This document shows, in pieces, positions 15,429-45,144 of a stretch of DNA of 50,602 nt. Origin of the DNA: an uncultured Bacteroidia bacterium (GTDB lineage: Bacteria; Bacteroidota; Bacteroidia; Bacteroidales; F082); contig CADBZW010000020.1 of NCBI GenBank assembly GCA_902799345.1, forward strand, positions 1 to 50,602, given 5' to 3'. The translations under genes and the position numbers were made by a program. Under the pieces are notes generated by a model that saw only the letters and a list, made by a program, of their open reading frames with translations, searched no databases and was not told where the DNA came from. The stretch's first letter is position 1; each line of letters starts with the position of its first letter.

Positions 15429-16856
15429 ATGAAAACAAAACTTTACTCCCTCCTCACCGGCCTGCTGATGGCCGCCTGTTTTACGAGCTACGGACAGGAA
15501 ATCGTCGGCACCCTCACCACTCCTGCCACTAGTTTCTATGGCGGCATTGTGGAGACCTCTGATGGCGGATTCCTCATCGGATGCTGCACCAACCTATACA
15601 ACAGAGGATACATGGTCTACAAAGTCGCCCCCGAAGGCGCCTTTCTCGACAGCGTTCGTTTTCCCGGCATCTACGACATGCTGGAGGTTCCGAGCGAACC
15701 CGACCTGACACTGTTGTATGGTTATGAAATCGAAGCCAACTTCTACCAGCTCACACTCACGCTCATTGACGATGACCTCAATGTGGTCAACGAAGCCAGC
15801 ATCCCCATCGGCGAGTATGACTATGATTTCTGGGACGGCTTCGTCTTTGTCTCTCCCAACGGCGAGATCCTTTTCCCCTATAGTGTTAACATGAATGACG
15901 TGTTCCACATCATGCGTATCGCCTTGGACGGTACGGTATTGGAGGACAAGGCTTTCGACGAGATTCCTTGCGGCACTTGGGACAGCGAAGGCACCAACGA
16001 CTCGATGGTGTATTATTCTGACGTCAACGTCTTTACCGAGTCGCCCTTAACCTACAATTGTCTGGGTATCTACAAGAACGCAGAAGACACGACCATCGTG
16101 GTCAACCGCCTCATGGACGAGAACCTGAACCTCATCGAAACCATCGAATATGCATCATACGACCCTGACGCGATTTTCGGTCCAGAGGGCTTCACCTTCG
16201 TCTCCACACTTGGTGCCGAGGCCTCAACACGCAAGACCTACCTTTCCACCTCGATGCGGATGCACAACATGACAACATCCACCATTATCAGATACGACAG
16301 CGACAACCATCCCGATGCCTGGCGAAGATTTACAAGCTACTCACGACCTGGCTATTTAGTGGCCAAAGAAGAAAACAGCTTATACTTCACATATTCAAGT
16401 AATTACAGAATTTCTCTCTATCGTTTAGACGGCGATCTCAACACCCTTTGGCACACTACACTGCCCAGTCCGACTTCAGCAATCACCTCCATACACACGA
16501 TGAAAACCTTTAAAAACGGAGACCTCGTCGTTGGATATAGCATCTATGAGCAAGGCGAGCCTTACGCCAACTACTGCATTGTCCATGACAACACCCTGGA
16601 CGGTATGGACGAACCCATACACGCCGAAAAGCCCTTCGAACTGTATCCCAACCCCACAAAAGGCACCATAACTCTCCGATTCACGAAAAGCGAGCCTACA
16701 AACGTGGAAGTATATGACCTCACAGGCCGTCTGATGATCACAAAAACCAATGGCCTGGAACGACTCGACATGAGCGCAATGCCCACAGGGGTATATATGC
16801 TGCATGTCACCATGAAAGACGGGATAAGCTACAACGAAAAGATCCTAAAAGAATAA
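15429..16856 (+). CDS. T9SS-sorted secreted protein, function unknown
   Basis: 475 residues with a signal peptide (MKTKLYSLLTGLLMAACFTSYGQ). The middle ~380 residues have regular beta-rich repeats (for example GGIVETSDGGFLIG, VYKVAPEGAF) resembling propeller blades, but no enzyme motif. The C-terminus is a T9SS type A domain: LYPNPTKGTI (~405), VEVYDLTGRLM, PTGVYMLHV. The lipobox-like MAAC is followed by more hydrophobic residues, and the YGQ cleavage site fits signal peptidase I better. The gene is bracketed by two copies of a 35-base direct repeat, each followed by a hairpin. Confidence 0.82.
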   Translation: MKTKLYSLLTGLLMAACFTSYGQEIVGTLTTPATSFYGGIVETSDGGFLIGCCTNLYNRGYMVYKVAPEGAFLDSVRFPGIYDMLEVPSEPDLTLLYGYEIEANFYQLTLTLIDDDLNVVNEASIPIGEYDYDFWDGFVFVSPNGEILFPYSVNMNDVFHIMRIALDGTVLEDKAFDEIPCGTWDSEGTNDSMVYYSDVNVFTESPLTYNCLGIYKNAEDTTIVVNRLMDENLNLIETIEYASYDPDAIFGPEGFTFVSTLGAEASTRKTYLSTSMRMHNMTTSTIIRYDSDNHPDAWRRFTSYSRPGYLVAKEENSLYFTYSSNYRISLYRLDGDLNTLWHTTLPSPTSAITSIHTMKTFKNGDLVVGYSIYEQGEPYANYCIVHDNTLDGMDEPIHAEKPFELYPNPTKGTITLRFTKSEPTNVEVYDLTGRLMITKTNGLERLDMSAMPTGVYMLHVTMKDGISYNEKILKE

Positions 16857-39571: not shown

Positions 39572-39647
<76 letters not shown>

Positions 39648-39741
39648 TTCGCTTTGCGAATCGGGGTTTCTGTCGCGACTCGGCATAATCAAACTTCGTT
39701 TGCTTCTGCTCTCACTGCTCCAGAAACACCGCCTGGCTTTG

Positions 39742-39814
<73 letters not shown>

Positions 39815-39876
39815 TTTGCTTGCAAATCGGGAACCTTATCACTTTCGCTCAAGGTTTCCGCTTGCGAATTGCGCGG

Positions 39877-40476: not shown

Positions 40477-41064
40477 ATGGAAAACAACGAATTGGAAGAA
40501 ATGCGGGCGCAATTGGCCACGTTGAACGAAAAGTTGGATAACGAAAGCATCGTTGACGAAAGGCTTGTCAGTGAAGCCACAAAAAAACACATTTCCAAAT
40601 TGCAGCGGAAACTGATTGGCAGAATCGTCATAATTACCCTGTGGGCAGCTTACTTTTATTGGAGGCTTGAACTTGGGATATTTCTACTTTGGTGCGTGGG
40701 ACTGCTCATCATAAGCATTTATATGTATTGTGTGGTTCGCCACGGCAATTCCGCCTCTCTGCCCGTAACGGAATACGCTCGGCGTCTCCGTAAGGCCCTG
40801 AAAATCTACAAAAAAGGAAATGGATTTATGTGGTTTTTATCCATTGTTCTTATATTGGCTTGGGGTACATACGTGCTTGTCTTAAATTGGCCATCAAATT
40901 TAGAACAAGCATTTATCGTTTTATTTGTGTGTTTCTTGATCGCTCTACTCCTATTGGTGGCCTATTTTATCAGCAATGTGTATGTTACTCCTGATGTCGA
41001 ACTGAAGTTGGAGATGGTTTTGGAGGATTTGGAGAAGGACTCTAATGATTCAGCAACTTCTTAA
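40477..41064 (+). CDS. Membrane protein, possible anti-sigma partner
   Basis: 195 residues. An N-terminal ~45-residue charged helix (NNELEEMRAQLATLNEKLDNESIVDERL) lies on the cytoplasmic side, then four hydrophobic helices (IVIITLWAAYFYWRL; IFLLWCVGLLIISIYMYCVV; FMWFLSIVLILAWGTYVLVL; FIVLFVCFLIALLLLVAYFI) and a short acidic tail. No zinc anti-sigma (ZAS) motif. Position after the ECF gene suggests co-regulation. The last seven residues (SNDSATS) and the stop codon are encoded by the antisense of the mutS-derived fragment at 41042-41101. AT-richer than its surroundings. Confidence 0.75.
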   Translation: MENNELEEMRAQLATLNEKLDNESIVDERLVSEATKKHISKLQRKLIGRIVIITLWAAYFYWRLELGIFLLWCVGLLIISIYMYCVVRHGNSASLPVTEYARRLRKALKIYKKGNGFMWFLSIVLILAWGTYVLVLNWPSNLEQAFIVLFVCFLIALLLLVAYFISNVYVTPDVELKLEMVLEDLEKDSNDSATS

Positions 41065-41101
41065 TCTCATTCAGCTTCATCAATGCCTCAACGGATGTCA
41101 A
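41042..41101 (-). pseudogene. Second copy of the mutS 3' end (fragment)
   Basis: 60 bases match 42541-42600, the end of mutS, at 53 positions. Read in the MutS frame it gives [19 protein letters not shown] and a TAG stop; the real gene has [19 protein letters not shown] and TAA. Of seven differences, five are synonymous and one only changes the stop codon. The ATPase gene's TGA stop is formed inside this fragment. Confidence 0.88.
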
Positions 41102-42309
41102 TACAGCATCCCAAACATCCACAAGGGAATACGGTTCAGATGGCCTATTTCCACGTCGTCAATGGCGAGATAACTGTCTGGGATGTTGGCGATTTGCCTG
41201 AAATCCTTGCTGCTGCCGCCCACCTCGAACAAATATTTCCCATCCAACAGAAAATCGCCCTTTTCGGGCATGGTCAATTGCCCGATGGCCGACAATTGGT
41301 TGGCAAAGAAGGTCTCCCGACAAGTGCCAAGATTCACCGTGCTTGACAAGGCATACATCAAATTGCCGTCGCCGAGGAAGATTTTTCCGGGTTTCGCAAG
41401 GTGTTTGTAGTCTTTTTGCTCTTTTGTCAATAGCAACAGCAGTCCCGCCCTATCCAGCAAATACAGGATTTTAAGGCACTGCGAAGGCGTCACTTCCAAT
41501 TCTTGGCTCAATCTGCTGATATTGGGCTGCAAAGGCACATTGGGCGCAATCACCATCAGCAACTGCTTGGCTTTCTGCACTGTGGCGTATGTAATATCCT
41601 CCACTGCGGGCATGTCGCTTTCCACCACCACATTGACCACTTCTCGCAAACGTGAGTGATAGTCATCCATTGAGATGGATTCCTTGTAAAAAGGATAGCA
41701 ACCCATTTGCAAATAACGGTCGAAATGCTGCAACACACGGGTATGCGACACCACGTCCATCGCTATGGCAAAATGCGACCCAAGCAATTCCTCGACGCTC
41801 ACGGCAGGAAACGCGCCAACACCTTCTAACTCAAGGTATTCACGAAACGAAAGGTCGCGCAAGGTATAAAGCATCTGTCGCCGCGAAAGATCGACTTTGG
41901 AATGGTCTATCTCTAACATCGAAGAACCCGTATAGACAATATGCAACTGGGGATAGCTGTCATAGATGTTTTTGATGTAACGGCTCCAATCGTTGAGTTT
42001 GTGCACTTCGTCCAAAAACAGATGGGTGAATCCGTGCGTATAAAGGTATTCCACCAACTCCATCAGGTCGTGGGCGCGAAACCACAAATCGTCCAACGAA
42101 GCATAAAACACCTTCTGCGCATCGGGAAAGTTCTCTTTGATATGTTGCAGCAACAAAGTGCTTTTTCCCACGCCTCGTGCGCCCCTGATGCCAATCAACC
42201 TTGCCTTCCAGTTGATTTTATGGTGAAGATAACGCTTGAAGGTCAAGTCCACTGTCATCAGTTTGTTATTAAACTGATTCACAAGAGGTAAAATGTCTTG
42301 ATAATCCAT
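41098..42309 (-). CDS. AAA ATPase (AAA_14/DUF4143 type)
   Basis: 403 residues. Walker A GARGVGKSTLL (~45-54), Walker B-like LFLDEVHK (~95) and a sensor region VYTGSSMLEI are followed by a winged-helix-like segment (ISRLSQELEVTPSQCLKILYLLDRAGLL). The C-terminus is DUF4143-like (LYALSS-type region, FFANQL, then DFLLDGKYLFEVGGSSK, a PD-(D/E)xK-like pattern). Such proteins are numerous in Bacteroidales genomes, often in accessory positions, with no settled function. The gene sits between mutS and a second copy of the mutS 3' end and is preceded by four iterated palindromes. Confidence 0.85.
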   Translation of the reverse strand: MDYQDILPLVNQFNNKLMTVDLTFKRYLHHKINWKARLIGIRGARGVGKSTLLLQHIKENFPDAQKVFYASLDDLWFRAHDLMELVEYLYTHGFTHLFLDEVHKLNDWSRYIKNIYDSYPQLHIVYTGSSMLEIDHSKVDLSRRQMLYTLRDLSFREYLELEGVGAFPAVSVEELLGSHFAIAMDVVSHTRVLQHFDRYLQMGCYPFYKESISMDDYHSRLREVVNVVVESDMPAVEDITYATVQKAKQLLMVIAPNVPLQPNISRLSQELEVTPSQCLKILYLLDRAGLLLLLTKEQKDYKHLAKPGKIFLGDGNLMYALSSTVNLGTCRETFFANQLSAIGQLTMPEKGDFLLDGKYLFEVGGSSKDFRQIANIPDSYLAIDDVEIGHLNRIPLWMFGMLY

Positions 42310-42329
42310 AATCGTAATTTTTTATGCTG

Positions 42330-42337
42330 CAAAAATA
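42330..42337 (-). promoter_or_regulatory. -7 promoter element of the ATPase gene
   Basis: The complement reads TATTTTTG, 20 bases before the start codon. The nearest TTTG (complement of 42353-42356, inside iteron 1) is 15 bases further upstream, closer than normal, so the first iteron overlaps the -33 region. Confidence 0.55.
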
Positions 42338-42346
42338 AGCATTTTC

Positions 42347-42457
42347 TGCTTTCAAAAGCATAAAAAATGGAGATTTTCTGCTTTCAAAAGTATAAAAATC
42401 AGAATTTTTCTGCTTTCTAAAGCATAAAAAATTGAAAATATCGTGCTTTCGAGAATA
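42347..42457. repeat. Four palindromic iterons, 32-33 base period
   Basis: TGCTTTCAAAAGCA (42347), TGCTTTCAAAAGTA (42379), TGCTTTCTAAAGCA (42411) and the degenerate TGCTTTCGAGAATA (42444) are spaced 32, 32 and 33 bases apart, about three helical turns. Flanking TTTTC and TAAAAA blocks are also repeated. Located directly upstream of the ATPase promoter, they look like operators bound on one face of the DNA. Confidence 0.8.
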
Positions 42458-42513
42458 GAAAATATCATTTCTGGACGGCTCGTGCCTCGCAGTGAAGCAA
42501 AGTGGGGCAAAGA

Positions 42514-42540
42514 CAGTCCCGCGTCTCGCGTCCCGCGTCC
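42514..42540. repeat. Heptanucleotide repeats next to the mutS stop
   Basis: GTCCCGC, GTCTCGC, GTCCCGC and GTCC in succession, ending at the base before the mutS stop codon. Same unit family as in the acyltransferase gene. Confidence 0.7.
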
Positions 42541-45144
42541 TTAATGATTCAGCAGTTTTTTGATCTCATTCAGCTTCATCAAAGCCTCAACGGGTGTCAA
42601 AGTGTCGATGTTCGTGTTGAGAATGTCCTCCTTGATTTGCAAAAGCAGCGGGTCGTCCAACTGAATGAAACTCAACTGCATGGCATCGTCTTGCTTTTTT
42701 GCGGCGGCTTTTTCGACATCCTCGCTCGTGTGTGACTTTTCCAAAACACTAAGCAAAGCCGTGGCGCGCTCGATGACCTTGCGCGGCATGCCCGCCATCT
42801 CGGCCACATGGATACCGAAACTATGGGCACTACCGCCACGCTTCAACTTGCGTAAAAACACCACCTTGTTGCCGACTTCCTTCACCGAAACATGGTAGTT
42901 CTTGATGCGGGCGAAAGAGTCCTCCATCTCGTTCAGTTCGTGGTAGTGCGTGGCAAACATCACCTTGGCACGACTCACGGGGTGGTCGTGCAAAAACTCG
43001 GTGATGGCCCATGCGATGCTGATGCCGTCGTAAGTGCTGGTGCCGCGCCCGATTTCGTCCAAAAGCACAAGGCTCCGCGATGACACATTATTCAAAATGC
43101 TCGCCGTCTCGTTCATTTCCACCATAAAGGTCGATTCGCCTGAAGAGATGTTATCAGAGGCACCAACGCGGGTGAAAATCTTGTCAACTAAGCCAATACG
43201 CGCCGAAGCCGCAGGAACGAAACAGCCCATCTGCGCCATCAGCACAATCAATGCCGTTTGTCGCAACAAGGCCGACTTACCCGACATGTTGGGACCCGTG
43301 ATGATGATGATTTGCTGCTTGTCGCGGTCGAGGTAGACATCATTGGCGATGTAGCTCTCCCCTACTGGCATCATCTGCTCGATGACAGGGTGACGCCCTT
43401 CCTTGATGTCGAGGACAAACGAGTCGTCGATGACGGGCTGCACATAGTTGTTTTTCAACGAAATATCGGCAAAGCTCACCAAGCAGTCGATGCGGGCCAC
43501 AATGGAAGCATCCACCTGGATAGGTTCCACAAACTCCGTCACAGCCGTGACCAATTCGTTATACAACCTCTGCTCGATAATGCTGATTTTCTCCTCCGCG
43601 CCGAGAATCTTCTGCTCGTATTCCTTCAGTTCCTCGGTGATGTAACGTTCGGCGTTGGTGAGGGTCTGCTTGCGGATCCACTCGGCCGGCACCTTGTCCT
43701 TATGGGCGTTGGTCACTTCGAGATAATAGCCAAACACATTGTTATATCCCACCTTCAGCGAGCTGATGCCCGTGGCTTCCATCTCGCGACGTTGGATGCC
43801 CATGAGGTATTCCTTGCCCGAGCGCGACAGGTTGCGCAGGTCGTCCAACTCAGGGTCGACGCCATCGGCGATATAGTTGCCTTTGGAGAGCAAGGCCGGC
43901 GCATCGGGGTTCAAGTCCTTCTTGATGCGCTCACGGATGGAGGCACAAGGGTTGAATTGCTCAGCAAAACGCAGCAAAGCAGGATGTTGGCTCTCCTCAC
44001 AAGCCGTCTTCAAGACTTCGATTTGGTCCAAGGCGCGCCCCACCTGCAACAGTTCTCTCGGATTGACTCTCGACAATGAAACCTTGGAGATAAGTCGCTC
44101 CAAATCACCCACTTGACGAACGGCATCCTGGAACTTCTGAATCTGTTCGCGGTGTTCCACGAAATAGCGCACCACCTCATACCTCGCCTCGATTTGCTCT
44201 TTGTTCTTCAACGGCAGACTCAGCCAGCGGCGCATCAATCGACCACCCATCGGCGAGACCGTCTTGTCGATAACGTCAATCAAGGTTTTGGCATTGAGAT
44301 TGGATGTGTGCAACAGTTCCAAATTGCGAATCGTGAACTTATCCAGCCACACATACTGCCCTTGGTCGATGCGGGAGAGCGAGGTGATATGGTTTAGTTT
44401 ATCATGTTGTGTTTCAATCAGATAATGGATTGCCGCACCAGCCGCCACGATGCCTTTCGGGAAGTCGTCGACGCCAAAGCCTTTCAGCGACACCGTATGA
44501 AAATGTTTGTTGAGGATCTCGTTGGCATAATCGTCGGTGAAGACCCAGTCGTCGAACACGGTGAGGTAATACTTCGCGCTGAACAGGTCGATGAAGTCCT
44601 TGCGCTTGTTGCGTTGCACCAAAACCTCGGAGGGATTGAAGCTCTGCAACAGCTTGTCGATGTATTCGTTGGTGCCTTGGGTGAGGAGGAACTCGCCCGT
44701 CGAGACATCCAAAAAAGCCACACCTGATATCTCCTTTTCGAGATGCACCGAAGCCAGGAAATTGTTCTCTTTCTGTTCCAGCACATTGTCGTTATAGGTC
44801 ACACCTGGCGTCACCAGCTCCACGATGCCACGCTTCACCAGTTTCTTGGCCAGTTTCGGGTCTTCAAGCTGCTCACACACAGCCACTTTCAGTCCGGCAC
44901 GAACCAACTTGGGCAGATAGGTATCCAAGGCATGGTGCGGAAAGCCCGCCAATTCGATGTCGGCAGACGCGCCGTTGGAGCGTTTGGTGAGCACGATGCC
45001 CAGAATTTTGGAAGACTTCACTGCGTCTTCGCCGTAGGTCTCGTAGAAGTCGCCCACTCGGAAGAGCAACATGGCGTCGGGGTATTTCGCCTTAAAGGAA
45101 AAATACTGTTTCATCAACGGGGTTTCGGTCGCTTTGTCTGCCAT
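42541..45144 (-). CDS. mutS: DNA mismatch repair ATPase MutS
   Basis: 867 residues, full length. It recognises mismatches and starts repair with MutL. The mismatch-binding wedge Phe33-Tyr34-Glu35 ([11 protein letters not shown]), connector and lever domains, Walker [15 protein letters not shown] (~617), STFMVEM and Walker [17 protein letters not shown] are all present, and the C-terminus ends [10 protein letters not shown]. The last 19 codons have a second copy at 41042-41101. Start at 45144 ([14 protein letters not shown]) is standard for the family. Confidence 0.97.

What the first reader, a model, noticed from the sequence alone, without database searches (positions are those of the whole stretch)
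41042..42600. AAA ATPase cassette flanked by two copies of the mutS 3' end
The ATPase gene and its iterons lie between the genuine mutS end (42541-42600) and a 60-base second copy (41042-41101), in direct orientation. The copies share 53 of 60 bases. Five of seven differences are synonymous in MutS and one only swaps the stop codon, so both copies descend from functional mutS ends. Elements that integrate at the 3' end of a conserved gene leave this kind of signature, restoring the gene with their own version. Here the element would be only about 1.4 kb, with no recombinase, carrying an ATPase type that is abundant but unexplained in Bacteroidales. The duplicate also provides the ATPase stop codon and, on the other strand, the end of the membrane-protein gene.
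Basis: partly seen in the sequence, partly recalled or inferred. Interest (0 to 1): 0.75.

Follow-up and report, generated by a model that had tools for sequence, protein, structure and literature searches.

The report
Defence-like ATPase gene inserted beside mutS
A single ATPase gene of a very common but uncharacterised family was spliced in behind the DNA-repair gene mutS and pushed a 60-base remnant of the old mutS end aside; this looks like ordinary one-sided recombination rather than a new transposon, but the ATPase family turns out to carry its own tightly spaced DNA repeats that make its function testable.

Summary
In detail: 53 of 60 bases match, the differences are as described, and similarity stops at 60 nt on both sides. 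One relative (G002) has the predicted empty site. The outer copy is closest to G002. The present mutS tail is closest to G007, which keeps a 75-nt, 99%-identical remnant of this ATPase behind mutS. So the ATPase probably came with a donor mutS end that displaced the old one. 'Restoring the gene with its own version' is partly right. An autonomous ATPase element is not supported: direct repeats flank 27/150 family loci versus 14/415 generic ORFs, but also 7/65 Fic genes (ATPase above Fic: p=0.13). Best explanation: one-sided homologous plus illegitimate recombination. What is family-specific is the promoter: tandem repeats of 32-33 bp period whose sequence tracks ATPase relatedness. The protein matches the PADLOC candidate PDC-S01, in print the fourth most common prokaryotic defence system, with validation pending for most such candidates (passages). 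Predicted fold: AAA+ ATPase, probable winged helix, PD-(D/E)XK-like end (domain reading mine).

The parts
41042..41101 (-). Outer copy of the mutS 3' end (taken as the displaced old end); also supplies the ATPase stop codon and the end of the convergent membrane gene
41098..42309 (-). AAA_14 ATPase, 403 aa, PDC-S01-like; Walker A (G43-T51) and Walker B (D100 E101) positions are among the invariant family columns
42342..42442 (-). Three near-palindromic repeats, 32-nt period, in the ATPase promoter region; the repeat pattern (up to 1 mismatch) occurs nowhere else in the window's genome
42470..42540 (.). Spacer between iterons and mutS, partly a repeat found at many places in genomes of the genus; similar spacer in G029
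42541..42600 (-). Genuine mutS 3' end (inner copy); its tip ATCAAAAAACTRCT is shared with G007, G003 and G012 only, among 24 relatives
42541..42755 (-). mutS tail (215 alignment columns) most similar to G007 (195/205 = 95.1%, highest of 78 pairs, median 83.1%)
42541..45144 (-). mutS, 867 aa
40477..41064 (+). Membrane-protein gene whose last codons lie in the outer copy; in G002 the same gene overlaps the single mutS end by 21 nt

Best explanation
Shown by sequence comparison: G002 has a single mutS end overlapping the 3' end of the convergent membrane gene; the window has the ATPase plus promoter repeats between two mutS ends. The outer end is closest to G002 (55/59), and the inner end with the preceding tail of about 215 nt is closest to G007, which keeps a remnant of the same ATPase there. 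Inferred: DNA from a G007-like or G029-like relative, carrying mutS tail - spacer - iterons - ATPase, recombined homologously inside the recipient's mutS, while its other end was joined illegitimately 60 nt before the recipient's mutS stop (TCAA at the junction could be a microhomology). The old 60-nt end stayed, perhaps because it is also the end of the membrane gene. The ATPase is thus an acquired single gene, and its own machinery need not have moved it. Its likely role, inferred from the predicted fold and the promoter arrays, is a DNA-bound AAA+ switch that assembles on its own 32-33 bp operator array (autoregulation) and acts through a nuclease-like C-terminal domain, as a candidate defence gene.
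For: Empty site in G002. In G016, G018, G021 and G028 an ORF of 247-253 aa, unrelated to the membrane protein except for its last ten residues, also ends 21 nt inside the mutS end, so joining of other genes to this mutS end has happened more than once. Allele pattern of the tail. ATPase remnants beside mutS in G007, G003 and G012, and a homologue in G029 (82% DNA, 90% protein), with differing sequence directly after the ATPase end. The same architecture elsewhere: an acyl-CoA dehydrogenase-like gene end copied right after the ATPase stop in G016 (82 nt), with a terminator-plus-iteron remnant in G010. Fic genes show it too, for example a stop codon plus terminator-like stretch copied at the Fic stop in L304. 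Precedent: HFIR with displacement of the old module (PMC5361080, passages; PMC3240628, abstract).
Against: G002 could instead be a site re-emptied by recombination between the repeats. Over the last 110 columns the best pair is G003-G012 and WIN-G007 is only third (93%); the 3' third of mutS is generally conserved, and the single best break for WIN-G007 fell at 827 nt, not 215. WIN is mosaic: spacer and stop region like G029, tail like G007. The outer copy begins within -4 to +5 nt of the inserted gene's stop in 7 of 27 ATPase hits and 3 of 7 Fic hits, more exact than random joining suggests. No donor with all parts was found; the G007 contig ends about 30 nt past the remnant.
Confidence: 0.6

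Rival explanations
1. ATPase-encoded mobility: the ATPase binds its iterons, its PD-(D/E)XK-like domain makes staggered nicks, and the unit inserts with long variable target duplications (about 40-250 bp).
For: 27/150 loci have flanking repeats against 14/415 ORFs (p=4.6e-8); 3 of those 14 are themselves AAA_14 or ATPase_2 ATPases. The closest relative at another site (81% protein) sits beside a rarA-like gene in G022, with DNA homology limited to window 41098-42431. L244 (65 nt, 100%) and L207 (50 nt, 98%) look recent.
Against: Fic genes show the same at 7/65, p=0.13 for ATPase above Fic; a modest ATPase excess is not excluded. Most copies have diverged. In G022 the second rarA copy lies 418 nt beyond the ATPase, after a stretch that reads like a DUF4143-ATPase tail, and no second copy was matched in G018. 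No inverted repeats of 16 nt or more join the two ends of the unit.
Confidence: 0.12
2. A circular DNA carrying the ATPase and a piece of the mutS end integrated by a single homologous crossover, giving two hybrid copies.
For: Direct repeats with donor-like and recipient-like alleles. Circularisation followed by single crossover of incoming DNA is described in E. coli (PMC3240628, abstract).
Against: A 60-nt homology would leave mutS upstream of -60 recipient-type, yet -60 to -215 is G007-like. No circle was observed.
Confidence: 0.15
3. Old insertion with a target duplication that simply diverged; the allele pattern reflects later gene conversion among species.
For: ATPase or remnant beside mutS in 5 genomes (WIN, G029, G007, G003, G012) suggests age.
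Against: The outer copy was not found in G029 (676 nt available), G003 or G012. The differences are mostly synonymous in MutS and match alleles of other species.
Confidence: 0.13

Closest known systems
Homology-facilitated illegitimate recombination / sequential displacement (Vibrio cholerae T6SS immunity arrays, PMC5361080)
   Same: One end anchored by homology, the new gene added, the old 3' module displaced downstream
   Different: Here the anchor is a housekeeping gene end, the displaced piece is 60 nt, and the cargo is a candidate defence ATPase; the mechanism is inferred, not reproduced (it is a proposed model in that paper too)
PDC-S01 candidate defence ATPases (PADLOC)
   Same: Profile match E 3.1e-26; ATPase fused to a PD-(D/E)-X-K member (passages of PMC12988326)
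   Different: Promoter arrays of 32-33 bp period and flanking gene-end repeats were not mentioned in the passages I saw; antiviral activity not tested here
Integrative elements targeting gene 3' ends
   Same: Gene end duplicated and gene restored
   Different: No recombinase gene recognised; the copies are not identical; related loci lack the second copy

Membership tests
AAA_14 / DUF4143 ATPases (Pfam) | AAA_14 domain above gathering score | tested here: met
   95.9 bits against 27; AAA_14 matches 56 of 56 members of alignment A1 at E<=0.01
AAA_14 / DUF4143 ATPases (Pfam) | DUF4143 C-terminal domain | tested here: inconclusive
   Not hit in the window protein, hit in 44 of 56 alignment members at E<=0.01
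PDC-S01 (PADLOC) | Match to PDC-S01 profiles | tested here: met
   Seven PDC-S01 profiles, best E 3.1e-26; PADLOC's own cut-off not shown
PDC-S01 (PADLOC) | PD-(D/E)XK C-terminal nuclease fold | tested here: inconclusive
   Model pLDDT 94.8, helix-strand C-terminus; E362 and K368 invariant, D352 at 90% or more; the 50 PDB matches listed are AAA+-type proteins and do not test this domain
PDC-S01 (PADLOC) | Anti-phage activity | not testable with these tools
   Needs a bench assay
Site-specific integrative element at a gene 3' end | Encoded recombinase | tested here: not met
   The only long ORF between the repeats is the ATPase, with no recombinase domain; short overlapping ORFs were not scanned
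Site-specific integrative element at a gene 3' end | Empty site with one copy | tested here: met
   G002, one genome
Site-specific integrative element at a gene 3' end | Same duplication at other copies of the element | tested here: not met
   Absent in G003, G012 and the 676 nt available in G029; 27 of 150 family loci show some flanking repeat
Homology-facilitated illegitimate recombination | Donor allele on the anchor side | tested here: met
   215-column tail closest to G007, top of 78 pairs, though not top over the last 110
Homology-facilitated illegitimate recombination | Non-homologous or microhomologous other junction | tested here: inconclusive
   TCAA shared between the G029-type flank and the mutS end (sequences); true donor flank unknown

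The most novel reading that the evidence does not exclude
PDC-S01-type ATPases are self-addressed selfish genes: each clade's protein reads its own near-palindromic 32-33 bp operator array and uses its nuclease-like domain to break DNA at neighbouring gene ends, promoting its own copying into relatives with co-conversion of the flanking gene end, in the manner of a homing gene without an intron.
Probability: 0.1. Interest if true: 0.85.

Novelty: new variant of a known kind. Interest (0 to 1): 0.5.

Why it matters
The insertion shows how single accessory genes may enter genomes with no transposon: anchored in a conserved gene end, leaving a small displaced remnant that can be scanned for. The ATPase family is among the commonest candidate defence genes (PMC12988326 and PMC13356809, passages), with validation pending for most such candidates in the passage I saw. 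Relative-specific operator arrays with a fixed period give a direct biochemical handle: which DNA it binds, whether it oligomerises along it, and whether it represses itself.

Tried and rejected
Longer mutS duplication: rejected, similarity ends at 60 nt. Chance match: rejected. Phage cargo: only 5 relatives in viral contigs, and the paired iteron pattern has 0 exact matches there. Iterons as genome-wide binding sites: the pattern occurs only at this locus in the window genome. ATPase-specific insertion: weakened by the Fic control; score thresholds 40, 50, 60 and 80 gave p=0.296, 0.128, 0.255 and 0.264 for ATPase above Fic. Empty site for the holA-like case (L076): the family search (6 genomes) found only distant relatives of the gene, uninformative. 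rarA-like case (L050): the second copy is not directly at the ATPase. Of the 5 generic-ORF hits, 3 are AAA_14 or ATPase_2 ATPases (Pfam), 1 is an ORF beside a family ATPase and 1 is window 15429-16856; all were kept in the 14 of 415. Generic ORFs were mechanical ORFs of 200-900 aa, so some may not be genes; one search required only 300 nt of flank, required 600-700. Some of the 27 ATPase hits are AT-rich or iteron similarity (L041, L029, L229, L142) or similarity of neighbouring genes (L033, L139); they were kept. Skipped before counting: L140 and L241 (short flanks), L170 and L210 (already in the first set); for Fic, L282, L314 and L331 (no motif) and 2 with short flanks. 70 of the listed Fic matches were fetched. 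Mismatched flank pairs (1105) reached 62 at most, above the threshold of 50. In one search a repeat of the generic-ORF shuffle test gave 10 of 224 instead of 12; 4 of those 10 have period 33 and lie in loci fetched for ATPases (L042, L071, L136, L129). Literature: ten searches on DUF4143, AAA_14, PDC-S01, COG1373, DUF234, HFIR and combined terms; in the listings I saw no title or abstract start on promoter arrays or gene-end duplications for this family. Of the papers, three were seen in passages (PMC13356809, PMC12988326, PMC5361080), one as abstract and outline (PMC3240628), the rest as listings. Gene names rarA, holA and acyl-CoA dehydrogenase are my reading of translations, not a family search.
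Full report
Observation. The 60-nt direct repeat exists as described. Its seven differences are five synonymous changes, a TAA/TAG swap and one Pro/Ser change, and similarity ends abruptly on both sides. The ATPase ORF (41098-42309, minus) takes its stop codon, and the membrane gene (40477-41064, plus) its end, from the outer copy.

Relatives. A DNA search of 60 genomes (41 had some match) and local alignment of fetched stretches gave several states at the mutS 3' end. G002: membrane gene contiguous with a single mutS end, no ATPase at the site (77% over 40477-41101; its ORF ends 21 nt inside mutS). G029: ATPase beside mutS (82% DNA), no second mutS end in the 676 nt available beyond it. G007, G003 and G012: no ATPase body at this site, but the last part of the ATPase gene (75 nt at 99% in G007 and 96% in G003; 26 nt at 92% in G012) plus iterons; in all three the mutS/iteron junction and the internal deletion junction read alike (my reading). 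G016, G018, G021 and G028: an ORF of 247-253 aa, unrelated to the membrane protein except for its last ten residues, ends 21 nt inside the mutS end. G022: mutS and the membrane gene 3.9 kb apart, with a 78% identical ATPase elsewhere, next to a rarA-like gene.

Which copy is old. The outer copy is closest to G002 (55/59) and G019 (54/58), against 53/60 to the inner copy. It carries the tip ATTAAGAAGTTG, seen in 8 of 24 relatives (my count), and runs into the same membrane-gene tail as G002. The inner tip ATCAAAAAACTRCT is seen in G007, G003 and G012 only, the genomes that have the remnant; G029, with an ATPase, has the ordinary tip. Over the last 215 columns WIN and G007 are 95.1% identical (195/205), the highest of 78 pairs (median 83.1%); over the last 110 columns G003-G012 is highest and WIN-G007 third. 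I read this as a donor tail that came in with the ATPase. Caveat: mutS is more conserved in its last third in nearly all comparisons, and a single-break scan put the WIN-G007 break at 827 nt, so the length of any transferred tract is uncertain.

Is it the ATPase that does this? I tested 150 distinct family loci for direct repeats between 1 kb upstream and 600 nt downstream: 68 of 69 from the stretches, and 82 of 83 new ones. 27 reached score 50 (11 and 16), against 14 of 415 generic ORFs (5 of 224; 9 of 191), p=4.6e-8. Three of the 14 are themselves AAA_14 or ATPase_2 ATPases. Among 1105 mismatched flank pairs the 99th percentile was 34 and the maximum 62. Examples: the 3' end of an acyl-CoA dehydrogenase-like gene copied at the ATPase stop in G016 (82 nt), a holA-like gene end (150 nt, L076), a rarA-like gene start (64 nt, L050), a 65-nt exact repeat (L244). 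The control that matters is another single accessory family in the same genomes: 7 of 65 Fic loci show it too, including a copied stop codon and terminator-like stretch in L304. ATPase above Fic gives p=0.13, Fic above generic ORFs p=0.015. So the signature is better seen as a mark of single-gene acquisition in general than as a property of this ATPase, although a modest ATPase excess is not excluded.

What is special to the family. Of 149 ATPase promoters, 81 have a tandem repeat in the 180 nt upstream at p<=0.01 (100 shuffles each), against 12 of 224 generic ORFs (10 of 224 in a second run). The period is 32 or 33 nt in 74 of the 84 cases with p<=0.02, and 64-66 in 7 more. Fic promoters also have repeats (15 of 65) but with scattered periods, one of 15 at 33. 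Among the 81 ATPases with 32/33- or 64-66-nt arrays, the unit is matched (18 or more of 24) in all 92 directed pairs with at least 80% protein identity and at chance level below 50%; units are more palindromic than shuffled ones (mean 6.35 against 5.18 of 9 pairs). In the window genome the pattern occurs only here. I infer that the protein binds its own promoter as an oligomer, about three helical turns per contact.

The protein. It matches seven PADLOC PDC-S01 profiles (best E 3.1e-26), Pfam AAA_14, and no NCBIfam model. A profile of the family found no convincing relative of known structure in the PDB by sequence (best hits are RecA fusions and P-loop matches). The AlphaFold2 model has mean pLDDT 94.8: an AAA+ domain, a helical linker, a helix-helix-helix-strand-strand unit (241-312) that I take for a winged helix, and a C-terminal unit with D352, E362 and K368 conserved, compatible with a PD-(D/E)XK domain. 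Foldseek's best PDB matches include Apaf-1, ORC, RFC and DnaA (E 2e-6 to 6e-6) with TM-scores of about 0.3 and rmsd above 10, so they support an AAA+ relationship and no more. PMC12988326 (passages) describes PDC-S01 as an ATPase fused to a PD-(D/E)-X-K member, fourth most common defence across prokaryotes, with validation pending for most PDCs; PMC13356809 (passages) reports it as the most frequent individual locus in rumen genomes (10,358).

Mechanism and precedent. The structure expected from homology-facilitated illegitimate recombination is an anchor gene with a donor-type end, the new gene, then the displaced recipient end. PMC5361080 (passages) proposed this for displaced immunity genes in Vibrio; PMC3240628 (abstract) describes the process and, as an alternative fate, circularisation with a single crossover. 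TCAA is shared by the G029-type ATPase flank and the mutS end (sequences), compatible with a microhomology but short. A fact I cannot fully explain is that the displaced copy starts within -4 to +5 nt of the inserted gene's stop in 7 of 27 ATPase and 3 of 7 Fic cases; four of the seven (L041, L029, L229, L142) are AT-rich or iteron similarity, and the alignment window began at -4, so some could start earlier.

Verdict. Real insertion, reading partly right, mechanism probably general and not element-specific. The lasting lead is the relative-specific 32-33 bp operator array of a very common, uncharacterised ATPase family.

Noticed in passing
window 42470-42540: This stretch has many further matches across genomes of the genus, the window's own included: an interspersed repeat.
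   Followed up: no
window 39574-39654 and 39741-39821: Two 81-nt copies, 99% identical, that look like a duplicated tRNA gene; not checked with a tRNA finder.
   Followed up: no
window 15429-16856: ORF with a 52-nt direct repeat on both sides; looks like an interspersed repeat, not tested.
   Followed up: no
L161 (G018, rarA-like site): A stretch that reads like a DUF4143-ATPase C-terminus with its own roughly 32-nt tandem repeats and no body: a possible second case of the 'iterons plus tail' decay pattern.
   Followed up: partly
L096 1434-2858 and L052 1908-3356: ATPase_2 and AAA_14/DUF4143 genes with palindrome-like repeats on both sides of the gene.
   Followed up: partly
L110 (G000:C46): The window genome has another family ATPase beside a second ATPase-like ORF, with a 75-nt palindrome-rich direct repeat around it.
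   Followed up: partly
G016, G018, G021, G028 (L103, L101, L097, L102): An ORF unrelated to the membrane gene ends in the same ...NDSATS read from the antisense of the mutS end: two unrelated genes have been joined to the same mutS end.
   Followed up: partly
Fic loci L263-L332: 15 of 65 Fic promoters have significant tandem repeats of varied period; possible autoregulation.
   Followed up: no
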